From positions 2,159,405 through 2,223,404 of the forward strand of contig NZ_CP093397.1 of NCBI RefSeq assembly GCF_029027585.1: a DNA stretch of 64,000 bases. The letters run 5' to 3'. The notes beneath the pieces were generated by a model. It made no database searches. It was not told the DNA's origin and saw nothing but the letters and a program-made list of their open reading frames with translations. The position numbers were made by a program, and so were the translations under genes. Origin of the DNA: Sulfurimonas sp. (GTDB lineage: Bacteria > Campylobacterota > Campylobacteria > Campylobacterales > Sulfurimonadaceae). Below are positions 21,492-27,667 of the stretch, one piece after another (position 1 is the stretch's first letter; every line of letters starts with the position of its first letter).

Positions 21492-22789
21492 ATGAAAAAT
21501 GAAGAACTTAAAAATAGGGATTTAAAAGTCCTTTGGCATCCATGTACCCAGATGAAAGACCATGAAACATTACCTCTTATTCCTATAAAAAAAGCTCATG
21601 GCGTTTGGCTTGAAGATTTTGAGGGAAATAAGTTTATAGATGCTGTTAGTAGCTGGTGGGTAAATATATTTGGACATACAAACAAATATATAAATGAGAA
21701 AATAAAAGAGCAGTTAGACACATTAGAACATGTGATATTAGCAGGTTTTACACATAAGGGTGTTGTTGAGTTGTCTGAGCGTTTAGTAAAACTAACACCA
21801 GAAGGACTTGAGAAATGTTTTTACTCAGATAATGGCTCAAGTGCGGTAGAAGTTGCTTTAAAGATGAGTTATCATGCGCATCTAAATGATGGCATCGATG
21901 GTAAAAATATTTTCGTTTCACTAACAAACTCTTATCACGGTGAAACTATCGGAGCACTTAGTGTTGGTGATGTTGAGTTATACAAACAAACTTATGAGCC
22001 ACTTTTGTTAAAAACAATACAAACGCCTGTTCCTTCTGACATGAGTATAGAGTCTGCAAAAATAGCTGCCCAAAAATTTGAAGAGTTATGTAAAAAAAGA
22101 TCAGATGAGCTAAGTGCAATAATCTTAGAACCTTTAGTTCAAGGGGCAGGGTATATGCATATGTATCATGAGGAGTTCTTAGTCTTAGTTCGCCAAATTT
22201 GTGATAAATACAATGTGCATTTAATCGCTGATGAAGTAATGGTTGGTTTTGGGAGAACAGGAGAACTTTTTGCTTGTCAAAAAGCAAACATAACACCTGA
22301 TTTTATAGTTCTCTCAAAAGGTTTAACGGGAGGTTATTTACCTCTTTCAGTCGTACTAACAACAAATGAAATTTATGCAAAATTTTACTGTGACTATGAT
22401 GAACATAAAGCATTCTTACATTCTCACTCATACACAGGCAACGCACTTGCTTGTGCTGCCGCAAACGCAACATTAGACATTTTTGAAAATGAAAATATTA
22501 TAGAAAAAAATAAAATTACTTCAAAATATATAGGTAAAAAATTAGAAAATTTTTAGAGTTACAAAATGTTGCATCTGTAAGACAAACAGGTATGATTTGT
22601 GCGATTGAGCTAAAAGGTTATGATTCATCACAGCGTATAGGTTTAAAGGTTTACCAGTATGCTCTTAAACATGAAGTTTTACTTAGACCACTTGGACATG
22701 TTATATACTTTATGCCACCTTATGTTATAACAAACAAAGAGATAGATAAAGTAATGGAAGTTGCTTATGAGGCTATCAAAACCTTATAA
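21492..22789 (+). CDS. bioA: Adenosylmethionine-8-amino-7-oxononanoate aminotransferase BioA; one frameshift
   Basis: It converts KAPA to DAPA in biotin synthesis using S-adenosylmethionine as amino donor. BioA hallmarks: LWHPCTQMKDHE near the start, SWWVNIFGH, the YSDNGSSAVEVALKMS loop, DEVMVGFGRTG, and the PLP lysine in FIVLSKGLTGGYLPLS. The frame breaks at the T5 run 22550-22554; one more T gives FLELQNVASVRQTG and continues into GHVIYFMPPYVI to a stop at 22789 (about 432 residues). It is divergent from ppiD and overlaps the convergent thioredoxin gene by 6 nt. Confidence 0.93.
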
Positions 22790-23735: not shown

Positions 23736-24866
23736 CTATTTAAACCAACTTTTCATTTTATCGATGGCAGAGTCTAAAACACCTTCATGAGGTTTTGATT
23801 CTATGCCAAAAGAGTCTTGAAGTTTTGTCAAAAGTTCTTTTTGTTCATCATTTAGTTTTTTAGGATAAGTTATGTTTACTTGAGCGATTAAGTTTCCTTT
23901 ACCGTGTCCGTGAACATCTTCTATACCTTCATTTCTAAAAGTGAAATGTTGCTTGTCTTTTGTACCAACATCTAGTTTTAACGCTAACTCTCCTCTTAAA
24001 GATGGAATAGTTAAAGTTTCTCCAGCAACTGCTTGAGTGAAAAATACAGGTATAGCTATATAAACATCATTTCCTTCTCTTTGAAAGTGTTTATCAGGTT
24101 TTACCCCAAAGGTAACATATAAGTCCCCTCTTGAAGCGCGTTTACCAATATTTCCTTTGCCAGATACTCTTAAGCGATTACCCTCATCGATACCTTGGGG
24201 AATTTTTATAGTTACAGATTCTCTTGTTTCTTCATAACCATTCCCATGACAACTTGTACAAGCATCTGAAGGAGCATTTCCAGCACCATTACAAACTGGA
24301 CAAGTTTGAGAAAAAGTCATAAAACCTTGTTTTATAAAAACCTGACCTTGACCTTTACACTGTTTACAAGTTGAAAGTTTTGCGTTTTTAGCACCTGTAC
24401 CCTTACATGGTTTACAAGCTTTTTTATATGTAAATTCTACTTCTTTTTCACAGCCAAAAATAGCCTCATTAAAAGTTAAGTACATCTCTACTTCTAAATC
24501 TAGTTGATATTTTTCCATATCCTCTGGGTTTTGACGGCGACTTCTGCCTCCACCACCACCAAAACCATTAAACATATCTTCAAACATAGAGCCTAAATCA
24601 TCAAAACCACCAGATGAACGACGACCTCCGCCACCCATGCCTTGAAGTCCTTCTTTACCGTAACGGTCATAGATGCTTTTTTGTTTTTCATCACTTAAGC
24701 ATTGATAGGCTTCATTACATAGTTTAAACTTATGTTCAGCATCTTCATTACCTTGATTTTTATCAGGGTGATACATCTTAGCCATTTTTCTATACGCTTT
24801 TTTAATAGTTGTTTTATCAGCACTTTGTGTTACTTCTAATATCTCATAATAGCTTAGTTCTTGCAT
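23736..24866 (-). CDS. dnaJ: Chaperone DnaJ
   Basis: A 376-residue Hsp40 co-chaperone of DnaK. The J domain (about 1-70) has the HPD triad at 33-35. A Gly/Phe-rich linker with GGGGRRSSGGF follows. The zinc region has four CxxCxGxG modules (CKPCKGTG, CKQCKGQG, CPVCNGAG, CTSCHGNG). The C-terminal substrate-binding domains complete a full-length type I DnaJ. Its upstream side faces the island that separates it from mltA. Confidence 0.96.
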   Translation of the reverse strand: MQELSYYEILEVTQSADKTTIKKAYRKMAKMYHPDKNQGNEDAEHKFKLCNEAYQCLSDEKQKSIYDRYGKEGLQGMGGGGRRSSGGFDDLGSMFEDMFNGFGGGGGRSRRQNPEDMEKYQLDLEVEMYLTFNEAIFGCEKEVEFTYKKACKPCKGTGAKNAKLSTCKQCKGQGQVFIKQGFMTFSQTCPVCNGAGNAPSDACTSCHGNGYEETRESVTIKIPQGIDEGNRLRVSGKGNIGKRASRGDLYVTFGVKPDKHFQREGNDVYIAIPVFFTQAVAGETLTIPSLRGELALKLDVGTKDKQHFTFRNEGIEDVHGHGKGNLIAQVNITYPKKLNDEQKELLTKLQDSFGIESKPHEGVLDSAIDKMKSWFK

Positions 24867-24908: not shown

Positions 24909-24931
24909 TTTTAAATTTAATATGAGTATAA
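24909..24931 (+). repeat. Left copy of 23-bp perfect direct repeat bounding the dnaJ-mltA island
   Basis: A 23-bp sequence starting TTTTAAATTT and ending GAGTATAA is repeated exactly at 26569-26591. The right copy lies just before the mltA start. Joining the left flank to the right flank would give a short ordinary dnaJ/mltA spacer, so the DNA between looks inserted. Confidence 0.7.
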
Positions 24932-24980
24932 GTGTTCTGCATAAGCTCTTTTCCTAGAATGAATTCGAGGCTGAGAGAAT

Positions 24981-24999
24981 AAAAAAACTCAATTTTTTT
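24981..24999 (-). terminator. Weak A7/T7 hairpin beyond the attC-like site
   Basis: Seven A, CTCAA, seven T form an A/T-only stem 8 nt from the attC-like element, with the T tract usable as a terminator in either direction. It is the only other structure between the left repeat and the attC-like site. Confidence 0.3.
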
Positions 25000-25006
25000 G
25001 AATACT

Positions 25007-25077
25007 TAATAACGGCTGTTTTGAGAAATACGAAGCCGCGCTTTGGTTTCTTATTTCTCTCCAAAATTTTGTTAGGT
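25007..25077 (-). other. Integron attC-like recombination site
   Basis: Read on the minus strand, the element starts with ACCTAAC (a perfect R'' box, RYYYAAC), 5 nt after the stop of the gene at 25083-25319. It ends with GTTATTA, keeping the invariant GTT of an R' box. Between them are two arms that pair almost fully: GAGAAATAAGAAACC against a complement matching 13 of 15 bases. Unpaired 5-nt spacers (AAAAT and GGCTG-type) and a TTTGG/TTTTG step with an extra G follow, as in the L boxes of attC. The length, 71 bp, is normal. A gene followed at once by attC is the cassette layout. No integrase is in the window. Confidence 0.5.
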
Positions 25078-25082
25078 TTGTG

Positions 25083-25319
25083 CTACCTAATAAGTACTAA
25101 ATCGCAAACATCTATCTCTGTATAACTATTTCTTGACACATGCCATTTTGAATCAAGTCGTAAAACAAATGTTCCTTCTCCAAATGGCTCATACTTAATT
25201 AATTTAACTTTTTCATCTCTATATTTCTTTTTCAATGGATTTAAAGGTTCAACTTTGTATATTTCATTTATAATGATTTCTACACTTCTGTTATATTTAC
25301 TATACTTACAATTTACCAA
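25083..25319 (-). CDS. Small protein of unknown function in the island
   Basis: A 78-residue protein with a TTG start preceded by AAGGA about 9 nt upstream. It is rich in Lys, Tyr and Val and has two Cys (residues 4 and 72). The pattern of short strands (KVKLIKYEPFGEGTFVLRLDSKWH) suggests a small beta-barrel such as an SH3-like fold, but I recognise no family. It lies 36 nt after the Sel1-repeat gene and directly before the attC-like element, as a cassette gene would. Confidence 0.6.
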   Translation of the reverse strand: MVNCKYSKYNRSVEIIINEIYKVEPLNPLKKKYRDEKVKLIKYEPFGEGTFVLRLDSKWHVSRNSYTEIDVCDLVLIR

Positions 25320-25355
25320 ATTATATCCTTAATTTATTACAATATTTTATTGTTT

Positions 25356-25802
25356 TTATTTCTTGTTTCTTATTTTTCTCATAAGCATTATTCTTTCTTT
25401 AAGCTCATTGTATGAATAGCATCCTATATCTAATCCATTATCACAAAGAGTTCCAAACATTTCAAATGCTCTTTTTCCATCTTTTTTCACTCCTCTTCCC
25501 TCTAAGTACATCATTGCTAAATTATGACAGGCTACCATATCTTCACCATCACAAGCTTTGCTATATAACTGTATTGCTTTTTGTAAATTTAGCCTTTTAC
25601 CTAAACCCTCATCGTAGCAGTATCCTGCTATTCGACAAGCATCCATATTGTTATCATCACAAGCTTTCTCATATAATTGTATTGCTTTATGAAAATCTCC
25701 ATTCTCATAGGCACTATTTGCTCTATTGTAATCGTTATAATAAAATTTAAAAAGTATTGTTCCAATAATTAAGATTACTACACCAATAAATATTTTATTC
25801 AC
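25356..25802 (-). CDS. Sel1-like repeat protein (Hcp type)
   Basis: A 148-residue protein with a GTG start preceded by AAAGG. An N-terminal hydrophobic segment (about residues 4-20) would anchor or export it. Then follow about three Sel1-like repeats of 36 residues with the KAIQLYEKACD...MDACRIAGYCY pattern. Each repeat carries paired Cys residues of the kind that form disulfides in the Helicobacter cysteine-rich proteins. It is probably periplasmic and involved in protein contacts; no enzyme activity is expected. Its location on a repeat-bounded island suggests horizontal gain. Confidence 0.8.
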   Translation of the reverse strand: MNKIFIGVVILIIGTILFKFYYNDYNRANSAYENGDFHKAIQLYEKACDDNNMDACRIAGYCYDEGLGKRLNLQKAIQLYSKACDGEDMVACHNLAMMYLEGRGVKKDGKRAFEMFGTLCDNGLDIGCYSYNELKERIMLMRKIRNKK

Positions 25803-26093
25803 ATTTCAACCTTTGATTTTTTTTATTGTATTTTTCATAATTTTTAGTGAAAATACAACTATTTATTTAAAGAACAGTATAGCACAAAGAACTATTAATT
25901 TTAATATTCAAGGAACACTTAAAAGATACCATAAAATTGAAAATATAGCTAATTTCATGACAAATCATCTTTTACATTTATTTTATGTCTTTATATGCTG
26001 AAACTAGTTGTTTTGATTTAAAAGTATGATTCCGACGGTGTAAAATATTGTGAGAATATAAAGTAATTTATTAGTTTAATTAAAAAGTATATA
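25803..26093. other. AT-rich gap without a convincing gene
   Basis: This roughly 290-bp stretch separates the minus-strand Sel1 gene from the plus-strand toxin-antitoxin pair. It is about 75-80% A+T. A 62-codon open frame at 25813-26001 lacks a ribosome binding site and has only poor, compositionally biased residues. I see no tRNA, second attC or transposon end here. It presumably holds promoters for both directions. Confidence 0.5.
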
Positions 26094-26110
26094 TCATTTT
26101 GATAAAATGA
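26094..26110. promoter_or_regulatory. Palindromic operator of the toxin-antitoxin operon
   Basis: TCATTTT-GAT-AAAATGA is a perfect 7-bp inverted repeat 27 bp before the antitoxin ATG at 26138, within the expected promoter. Type II antitoxins usually repress their own promoter through such sites. Confidence 0.55.
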
Positions 26111-26137
26111 CTTATATTTTAAATAGTGGAGATTAAA

Positions 26138-26326
26138 ATGCAAACATTAACAGTAAATATACAAAATGATACTTTAGTTGAAAAAGTTGTTTGGTTATTG
26201 GAACATTTCAAAAATGATGGATTAGAAATTACTTCAAGAGAAGATATTGAAGATTTAAAGCTTTTAAAATCTACAAAAAAAGAAGAAACTGTATCTTTTG
26301 AAAATTATTTAAAAAATGAAGATTGA
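26138..26326 (+). CDS. Antitoxin of a RelE/ParE-type toxin-antitoxin pair
   Basis: A 62-residue protein. The ATG at 26138 follows GGAG by 6 nt and is preferred over the in-frame GTG at 26126. The first half (QTLTVNIQNDTLVEKVVWLLEHF) looks like a dimerising DNA-binding part; the charged second half (EDIEDLKLLKSTKKEETVSFENYLKNED) would wrap the toxin. It overlaps the toxin gene by 11 nt, the usual coupling for type II pairs. It is not assignable to a named antitoxin family by eye. Confidence 0.75.
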   Translation: MQTLTVNIQNDTLVEKVVWLLEHFKNDGLEITSREDIEDLKLLKSTKKEETVSFENYLKNED

Positions 26327-26558
26327 AATTAGAAAAAGTGCTATAAAAGATTTAAAGCATATTTCCCAGCCTTTTAAAGATAATATACATAATAAAATTT
26401 TAGAGTTAAAAGATTTTCCAAATATACAAAATATTAAAAAATTAACAAATTTTGAACCAGCATACAGATTAAGAGTTGGAAATTATAGAGTTTTATTTGA
26501 TGTATTAGATGATATTATAACAATTGGTAGAGTTTTACATAGACAAAATAGTTATTGA
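26316..26558 (+). CDS. RelE/ParE-superfamily toxin
   Basis: An 80-residue protein with the RelE fold pattern: IEIRKSAIKDLKHI at the start, FPNIQNIKKLTNFEPAYRLRVGNYRVLFDV in the middle, and a GRVLHRQNSY end. The R-x-R-V-G-x-Y-R-V motif and the terminal Arg/Tyr fit the RelE mRNA-interferase type; ParE-like gyrase poisons share the fold, so the target is not fixed. It overlaps the antitoxin by 11 nt. It is the last gene before the right direct repeat, so the pair may stabilise the island. Confidence 0.85.
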   Translation: MKIEIRKSAIKDLKHISQPFKDNIHNKILELKDFPNIQNIKKLTNFEPAYRLRVGNYRVLFDVLDDIITIGRVLHRQNSY

Positions 26559-26568
26559 TTTGTACTTA

Positions 26569-26591
26569 TTTTAAATTTAATATGAGTATAA
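26569..26591 (+). repeat. Right copy of 23-bp perfect direct repeat bounding the island
   Basis: Identical to 24909-24931. It ends 8 bp before the mltA ATG at 26600, so it also forms the mltA promoter/leader (GAGTATAATTC contains a TATAAT -10). The spacing between the two copies is 1660 bp. Confidence 0.7.
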
Positions 26592-26599
26592 TTCTTTTT

Positions 26600-27667
26600 A
26601 TGAAAAATACATTGATGCTATTTGTTATAATTATACTTTTTTTAGGGTGTGCGAAAGAAGAAAAATCAATATTTTCAAGCAGTAGCTTTGAAGAACTTCC
26701 AAGATGGCAAGATGAAAATCATAAAAAAGCTCTTAACTCATTTATAAACAGTTGTAAAAGTAAAAAAACTCAAAAACTCTACTCGCATCTATGTCAAAAA
26801 GCAACTTTAAGTCAAAATCCAAAAACTTTTTTTGAAACAGAATTTGATGTTTTTAAAATCCAAAGTCTAGATGCCAACAAAAAAGGACTTTTGACAGGTT
26901 ATTATGAACCTACTATTAGAGGCTCTTTTATAAAAAAAGAACCATATATTTACCCACTTTATAATGAACCAAATGATTTGATAAGTGTTGATTTAACTAG
27001 CATCTATGCAGATTTAAAAAATTATAGACTTCGAGGAAGAGTTGTAGGTAATAAATTAGTTCCATATTACACAAGAGAACAAATTGAAAACCAAGAGATA
27101 GATGCTAAAGTTATTTGTTATACAGACTCAAAGATAGACCTTTTCTTTTTAGAAGTTCAAGGTTCTGGAATGGTAAGTTTTGAAAATGAAGAAAGTATTT
27201 TTGTAGGTTTTGCAAATCAAAATGGACATAAATATAGTTCTATTGGTAAATATTTGGTAGAAAAGGGTGAGATAGAGCAACAACTTATATCTTTACAAAG
27301 TATTAAAAAGTGGTTTAAAAAAAATCCTAGTAGAATTGATGAAGTTTTAAACTATAACAAATCAGTAGTCTTTTTTAAAGAAAAAAAGCACTCTGCATCT
27401 GGTTCCCTTGGTCTGGTTTTAACACCAGAGCGTTCTGTTGCAGTAGATAAAAATATCATAAAATTAGGAAGCATATTGTTCTTAGATGCTATGATAGATG
27501 GAAAGAAGGTAGATAAAATAGTGATGGCAGAAGATACAGGTGGGGCAATAAAAGGCGAAGTAAGAGTAGATATGTTTTTTGGTTCTTCAAAGAGAGCTAG
27601 TAGAGTTGCTGGAGAATTAAAATCAGATTTAAAATTATGGATATTACTACCAAAGGAAGATAATTGA
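26600..27667 (+). CDS. mltA: Membrane-bound lytic murein transglycosylase A
   Basis: It cuts peptidoglycan glycan strands, leaving 1,6-anhydromuramyl ends, from the inner face of the outer membrane. The ATG at 26600 is chosen because it yields a proper lipoprotein signal with lipobox FLGC (Cys 17); the frame is open further upstream to 26555. Domain marks are LTGYYEPTIRGS, the beta-barrel insert, QGSGMVSFEN, and the catalytic-Asp 3D segment VMAEDTGGAIKG near the C-terminus. Its stop overlaps the TTG start of recR. Confidence 0.93.
   Translation: MKNTLMLFVIIILFLGCAKEEKSIFSSSSFEELPRWQDENHKKALNSFINSCKSKKTQKLYSHLCQKATLSQNPKTFFETEFDVFKIQSLDANKKGLLTGYYEPTIRGSFIKKEPYIYPLYNEPNDLISVDLTSIYADLKNYRLRGRVVGNKLVPYYTREQIENQEIDAKVICYTDSKIDLFFLEVQGSGMVSFENEESIFVGFANQNGHKYSSIGKYLVEKGEIEQQLISLQSIKKWFKKNPSRIDEVLNYNKSVVFFKEKKHSASGSLGLVLTPERSVAVDKNIIKLGSILFLDAMIDGKKVDKIVMAEDTGGAIKGEVRVDMFFGSSKRASRVAGELKSDLKLWILLPKEDN

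What the first reader, a model, noticed from the sequence alone, without database searches (positions are those of the whole stretch)
24909..26591. Island between dnaJ and mltA bounded by 23-bp perfect direct repeats
The repeats are exact and the right copy overlaps the mltA leader. Removing one copy and the 1.64 kb between restores a short spacer with a normal -10 for mltA. This points to a discrete insertion event, yet no transposase or integrase is inside. The mechanism (site-specific integration, cassette capture or repeat-mediated gain) is unexplained.
Basis: partly seen in the sequence, partly recalled or inferred. Interest (0 to 1): 0.62.

Follow-up and report, generated by a model that had tools for sequence, protein, structure and literature searches.

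The report
Integrase-less integron remnant beside mltA
The 1.6-kb island between dnaJ and mltA in this Sulfurimonas genome is a leftover piece of a gene-capture element (an integron that lacks its own recombinase) plus a toxin-antitoxin pair, and its 23-bp direct repeats are two copies of the promoter that dnaJ and mltA normally share.

Summary
Two identical 23-mers (24909-24931, 26569-26591) flank 1,637 bp. They are by far the longest direct repeat in the window, and no related genome with both genes carries the island; relatives hold one diverged copy in a 70-125-bp dnaJ-mltA spacer. The repeat is the overlapping divergent dnaJ/mltA promoter, so both genes keep promoter sequence.

The interior is explained. 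On the minus strand it reads as a truncated chromosomal integron: an attI-like site (25852-25917), a two-gene cassette (Sel1-repeat protein and a 78-aa orphan), and a structured attC (25007-25077). Where intI would lie there is a ParE-type toxin-antitoxin pair. Homologues of that pair are integron cassettes in two congeners. The genome has a full IntI and a seven-attC array about 850 kb away.

The island belongs to a genus-wide set. In ten near-complete genomes, 23 of 27 attC clusters are headed by this attI, never in another geometry, usually without an intact intI. Standard tools do not report single-attC units and cannot see these attI sites.

How the 23-bp duplication arose is not shown. 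None of 34 other attI sites examined has such flanking repeats, so it is not a hallmark of the family.

The parts
23736..24866 (-). dnaJ (flanking gene)
   Evidence: Pfam DnaJ, DnaJ_C, DnaJ_CXXCXGXG
24909..24931 (.). left 23-bp direct repeat; on the dnaJ side it is the upstream part of the shared divergent promoter
   Evidence: aligns with the single copy in empty sites
24932..25006 (.). 75-bp tail between the repeat and the attC, origin unknown
   Evidence: no match in relatives
25007..25077 (-). attC site: R'' ACCTAAC, R' GTTATTA, 71 nt; expected IntI crossover between 25012 and 25013
   Evidence: BLAST to attC sites of congeners, best E 8.5e-17; model R1 70.0 bits (this site was in the training set); covariation
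25013..25858 (-). gene cassette, 846 bp, from the attI crossover to the attC crossover; no attC between its two genes
   Evidence: sequence
25083..25319 (-). 78-aa orphan ORF (TTG start)
   Evidence: no Pfam or NCBIfam match; found in 1 of 299 genomes, its own; none in plasmids or viral contigs
25356..25802 (-). Sel1-repeat protein, 148 aa (GTG start)
   Evidence: Pfam Sel1 E 1.4e-18
25852..25917 (+). attI-like site (written in the direction of the absent intI); crossover expected between 25858 and 25859; TATACT on the minus strand is a possible cassette promoter
   Evidence: model R2, built without the window, 28.6 bits; nhmmer 21.4 bits against at most 11.0 in 40 shuffles; alignment with 15 intI leaders
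25918..25975 (+). remnant of the attI-intI leader, fading to the right
   Evidence: alignment; 79% identity to another attI copy, G025 C251, over 25852-25964
26060..26137 (+). probable toxin-antitoxin promoter region
   Evidence: similar to the region upstream of another ORF in L002
26138..26326 (+). antitoxin-like ORF, 62 aa
   Evidence: overlaps the toxin ORF; 77% identical to the cassette-borne homologue in G107
26316..26558 (+). ParE-family toxin ORF, 80 aa
   Evidence: Pfam ParE_toxin E 2.2e-12; homologue is an attC-flanked cassette in G107
26569..26591 (.). right 23-bp direct repeat; carries the -10 of mltA
26600..27667 (+). mltA (flanking gene)
   Evidence: Pfam MltA and 3D

Best explanation
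The island is an integrase-less remnant of a Sulfurimonas chromosomal integron. Read on the minus strand, an attI-like platform is followed by one two-gene cassette closed by an attC. A ParE-type toxin-antitoxin pair occupies the place of intI. It entered the shared dnaJ/mltA promoter region, and the 23-bp promoter core now exists on both sides, so dnaJ and mltA each keep promoter sequence. Cassette exchange at this platform would need the IntI encoded about 850 kb away, acting in trans. SHOWN by sequence: insertion relative to relatives, one repeat copy at empty sites, attI, attC, the toxin-antitoxin family, the intact intI gene elsewhere, and the genus-wide set of attI-headed units. INFERRED: that the unit arose by loss of intI, as in the many graded remnants; that the duplication was kept because it preserves both promoters; that the toxin-antitoxin pair stabilises the unit. 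NOT KNOWN: how the DNA arrived and made the 23-bp duplication (for example fill-in of a staggered break, or recombination with a fragment carrying the promoter core).
For: attC: homologous sites in many congeners and clustered arrays, with paired changes that keep the hairpin. attI: same core as 15 intI leaders, well above shuffles. Full IntI with 400 bits to TIGR02249 (cut-off 265) and array G000:1324507-1330624. In ten genomes 23 of 27 attC clusters are attI-headed and none is in another geometry. Graded intI loss at sister sites. The toxin-antitoxin homologue lies between two attC sites in G107. Empty sites with one repeat copy.
Against: No intI fragment is recognisable in the island. The toxin-antitoxin pair lacks the attC of its cassette relatives, and its upstream region differs from theirs. 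The 75-bp tail matches nothing. The repeat ends are not at an IntI crossover (G^TT). The window attI scores lower than most platforms that still have intI (28.6 bits against 30.5-53.5). No functional data.
Confidence: 0.78

Rival explanations
1. Site-specific integrative element: a circular DNA carrying the 23-mer as att core was integrated by a tyrosine recombinase encoded elsewhere, leaving the core on both sides.
For: Perfect repeats with one copy at the empty site are the expected geometry; no recombinase is needed inside if it acts in trans.
Against: No other exact 23-mer in the genome. None of 34 other attI sites has comparable flanking repeats. The 23-mer is a diverging promoter core, not a conserved att site.
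Confidence: 0.15
2. Off-target IntI insertion: a cassette was put straight into the dnaJ-mltA promoter by the resident IntI (attG-type event).
For: IntI and an attC are present; off-target activity of IntI is reported (title and abstract of PMC10127599; attG cited in PMC12901181).
Against: The attC crossover (25012/25013) is 81 bp from the repeat, the unit includes an attI and a toxin-antitoxin pair without an attC, and such a reaction should not duplicate 23 bp of target (own knowledge). It may still explain entry of the cassette at the attI.
Confidence: 0.07
3. Ordinary transposition with a 23-bp target-site duplication by an element whose transposase was lost or acted in trans.
For: Clean single-copy empty sites.
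Against: No terminal inverted repeats at the island ends; 23 bp is longer than usual for known transposons (own knowledge); the content is explained by integron parts.
Confidence: 0.07
4. Stepwise build-up: the promoter core was tandemly duplicated, or the toxin-antitoxin pair arrived first, and the integron remnant came later.
For: Other species have unrelated inserts in the same spacer: a nucleotidyltransferase/HepT-like pair in L353, hairpin-rich inserts in L303 and L335.
Against: Those inserts have no long flanking repeats; no intermediate was found.
Confidence: 0.25

Closest known systems
Sedentary chromosomal integron (intI-attI-attC arrays)
   Same: attI-like site, cassette and folded attC in the standard order and orientation; cognate IntI in the same genome
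   Different: no intI in cis, only one attC, a toxin-antitoxin pair in the intI position, flanked by a duplicated host promoter
CALIN / single-attC remnants as defined by IntegronFinder
   Same: attC without a neighbouring intI
   Different: headed by a recognisable attI-like platform; a single attC is below the default reporting threshold of two, and attI sites outside class 1 are not detected (PMC9024848)
attI-ORF-deltaattI cassettes of mobile integrons (PMC12901181)
   Same: attI sequence associated with a cassette away from the usual arrangement
   Different: there attI replaces the downstream attC; here attI lies upstream and the attC is normal
Toxin-antitoxin cassettes of chromosomal integrons
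   Same: ParE-type pair whose homologues are cassettes with attC in two congeners
   Different: this copy has no attC of its own

Membership tests
Integron (complete) | intI next to attI | tested here: not met
   no intI or fragment in the island; intact intI about 850 kb away
Integron (complete) | attI recombination site | tested here: met
   sequence test only: R2 28.6 bits; nhmmer 21.4 against at most 11.0 in shuffles; activity not tested
Integron (complete) | attC with R''/R' boxes and folded arms | tested here: met
   RYYYAAC = ACCTAAC; GTTA kept in R', outer three bases not complementary; hairpin covariation; DNA fold z -2.2
Integron (complete) | cassette promoter Pc at attI | tested here: inconclusive
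   TATACT in the attI points into the cassette by eye; no transcription data
CALIN | attC site(s) without integrase within reach | tested here: met
   one attC, no intI nearby; below IntegronFinder's default of two
Gene cassette | ORF bounded by crossover points attI/attC | tested here: met
   25013-25858 with two ORFs and no internal attC
Gene cassette | mobilised by IntI | not testable with these tools
   needs a recombination assay
Transposon with target-site duplication | transposase and terminal inverted repeats | tested here: not met
   neither found
Integrative element of a tyrosine recombinase | recombinase in the element | tested here: not met
   none inside
ParDE-type toxin-antitoxin | ParE toxin paired with an adjacent antitoxin gene | tested here: met
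   PF05016 E 2.2e-12, overlapping upstream ORF without a family match
ParDE-type toxin-antitoxin | toxicity and neutralisation | not testable with these tools
   expression assay needed

The most novel reading that the evidence does not exclude
In Sulfurimonas the integron platform itself (attI, with or without intI) moves between chromosomal sites, leaving several attI-headed, integrase-less platforms per genome that a single IntI could serve in trans; the dnaJ-mltA island is a recent arrival whose entry duplicated its target promoter.
Probability: 0.25. Interest if true: 0.75.

Novelty: new variant of a known kind. Interest (0 to 1): 0.5.

Why it matters
Integrons are usually treated as one platform per chromosome, and their attI sites outside class 1 are poorly described. 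A conserved attI that marks many scattered, integrase-less units in a genus outside the well-studied gamma-proteobacteria makes it testable whether one integrase serves several platforms, whether platforms move, and how many single-attC remnants current tools miss. The duplicated promoter shows how an insertion can land in a shared promoter of two conserved genes without cutting either off from it.

Tried and rejected
Rfam found nothing in the island. No tRNA in the window. The 78-aa ORF has no relatives in 299 genomes, plasmids or viral contigs, so the cassette origin could not be traced. The flanking-repeat idea was tested as a hallmark on 35 attI sites and rejected: only the window passes. 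The def-comM site was examined for a clean junction of a whole integron; the left junction of the own copy is obscured by an IS3-type insertion, so no insertion mechanism could be read. A genome-wide promoter-motif explanation of the repeat was rejected.

Full report
OBSERVATION. Two identical 23-mers lie at 24909-24931 and 26569-26591. They are the longest direct repeat of the window within 5 kb; the next is 16 bp, no local shuffle of 300 exceeds 17, and the best of 30 whole-window shuffles is 20. In its own genome the 23-mer has no third exact copy.

EMPTY SITE. The organism is a Sulfurimonas by inference: its nearest MltA loci carry that name. In the relatives searched, dnaJ and mltA are divergent neighbours with a short spacer holding one diverged copy (1-4 mismatches in the closer species). 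None of 76 named loci with both genes has the island. Distances of 150-245 in that table are mostly partial mltA matches. L281, L303, L335 and L353 have other inserts. The copy overlaps the -10 of mltA and the region upstream of the -10 of dnaJ, so a duplication keeps both promoters; this is read from sequence, not measured. Joining the flanks gives 73 bp, a typical spacer.

INSIDE: attC. Minus strand 25007-25077 is an attC. BLAST finds it in many congeners, clustered in G011, G063 and G005. Twenty sites, 68-71 nt, share R''/R' boxes and arms. The structure I wrote for them has 87.8% paired cells and strong covariation. The window site was one of the twenty, so its 70-bit score is not independent; the BLAST match is.

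INSIDE: attI. The stretch 25852-25917 matches the conserved site about 215-285 bp upstream of intI in 15 genomes, nearly all of the same genus. A model built without the window finds it at 28.6 bits, the only hit in the window. With nhmmer it scores 21.4 bits against at most 11.0 in 40 shuffles. The leader similarity runs on to about 25975.

INSIDE: genes. Between attI and attC lie a Sel1-repeat protein and a 78-aa orphan without an intervening attC, i.e. one two-gene cassette. Beyond the leader, where intI would be, is a ParE-type toxin-antitoxin pair. Its 80%-identical homologues in G107 and G018 are followed by an attC, in G107 also preceded by one; in G021 the homologue lies beside what reads as a tyrosine recombinase (by eye). 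Here the pair has no attC.

INTEGRASE. The genome encodes a full IntI (TIGR02249, 400 bits, cut-off 265) at 1331790-1332734 next to comM, with an array of seven attC sites. The island is about 850 kb away.

A FAMILY. attC sites occur in 60 of 80 and attI-like sites in 65 of 80 genomes of the genus. In ten near-complete genomes 23 of 27 attC clusters are headed by an attI-like site and none stands in another geometry; 17 further attI-like sites, some of them weak matches, have no attC. To the right of these sites one finds intact intI, truncated or frame-broken intI, leader only, or a host gene directly. The intI side abuts a recN-like gene in many genomes, comM or gltD in others, and several further contexts. 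So the platform has occupied many places; whether it moved or was inherited and lost cannot be decided here.

THE REPEATS. Of 35 attI sites tested, only the window has a long direct repeat between left and right flank; among mismatched pairs of flanks the longest is 20 bp, once. The duplication is therefore a feature of this event, not of the family. IntI chemistry (own knowledge) joins at G^TT and gives no such duplication, and the repeat ends do not coincide with the crossover. Promoter preservation explains why such an event survived, not how it happened.

KNOWN. Integrons and CALINs in Sulfurimonas and Sulfurovum have been reported (PMC10295459). IntegronFinder does not detect attI outside class 1 and by default drops single-attC units (PMC9024848). 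I found no paper describing dispersed attI-headed, integrase-less units in this genus; the library searched is open-access only.

VERDICT. The island's content is an integron remnant with a toxin-antitoxin pair (high confidence). The origin of the 23-bp duplication is open. Interest is moderate, mostly for the genus-wide pattern.

Noticed in passing
L151:6856-7738 (G000:C1:2062855-2063737): A second solitary attI-cassette-attC unit in the same genome carries a class D beta-lactamase gene (NF012161, 276 bits, cut-off 250); next to it are a LeuA C-terminal fragment and gltD.
   Followed up: partly
intI leaders (L097-L116) and comM upstream regions (L246-L274): A 17-bp palindrome TATGACA-N3-TGTCATA lies about 168 bp before the intI match in most leaders and about 60 bp before comM in most genomes, suggesting that integrase and a competence gene share a regulator. 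The region before recN in L115 shows a similar sequence by eye.
   Followed up: partly
L353, between dnaJ and mltA (Sulfurimonas sp. S147 MAG): A nucleotidyltransferase/HepT-like gene pair is inserted in the same spacer in another species; L303 and L335 have inserts with long inverted repeats there.
   Followed up: partly
L127:7085-9244 (G000): Two partly duplicated ORFs that read as IS3-type transposases lie between def and the end of the integron array.
   Followed up: no
G000:C1:32565, 2082879, 2481530: Further attI-like sites without a detected attC in the same genome; at 32565 the leader runs into a broken intI start.
   Followed up: partly
window 21492-22789: The aminotransferase-like ORF 21492-22556 appears to continue in another frame at 22592-22789, a possible frameshift.
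   Followed up: no
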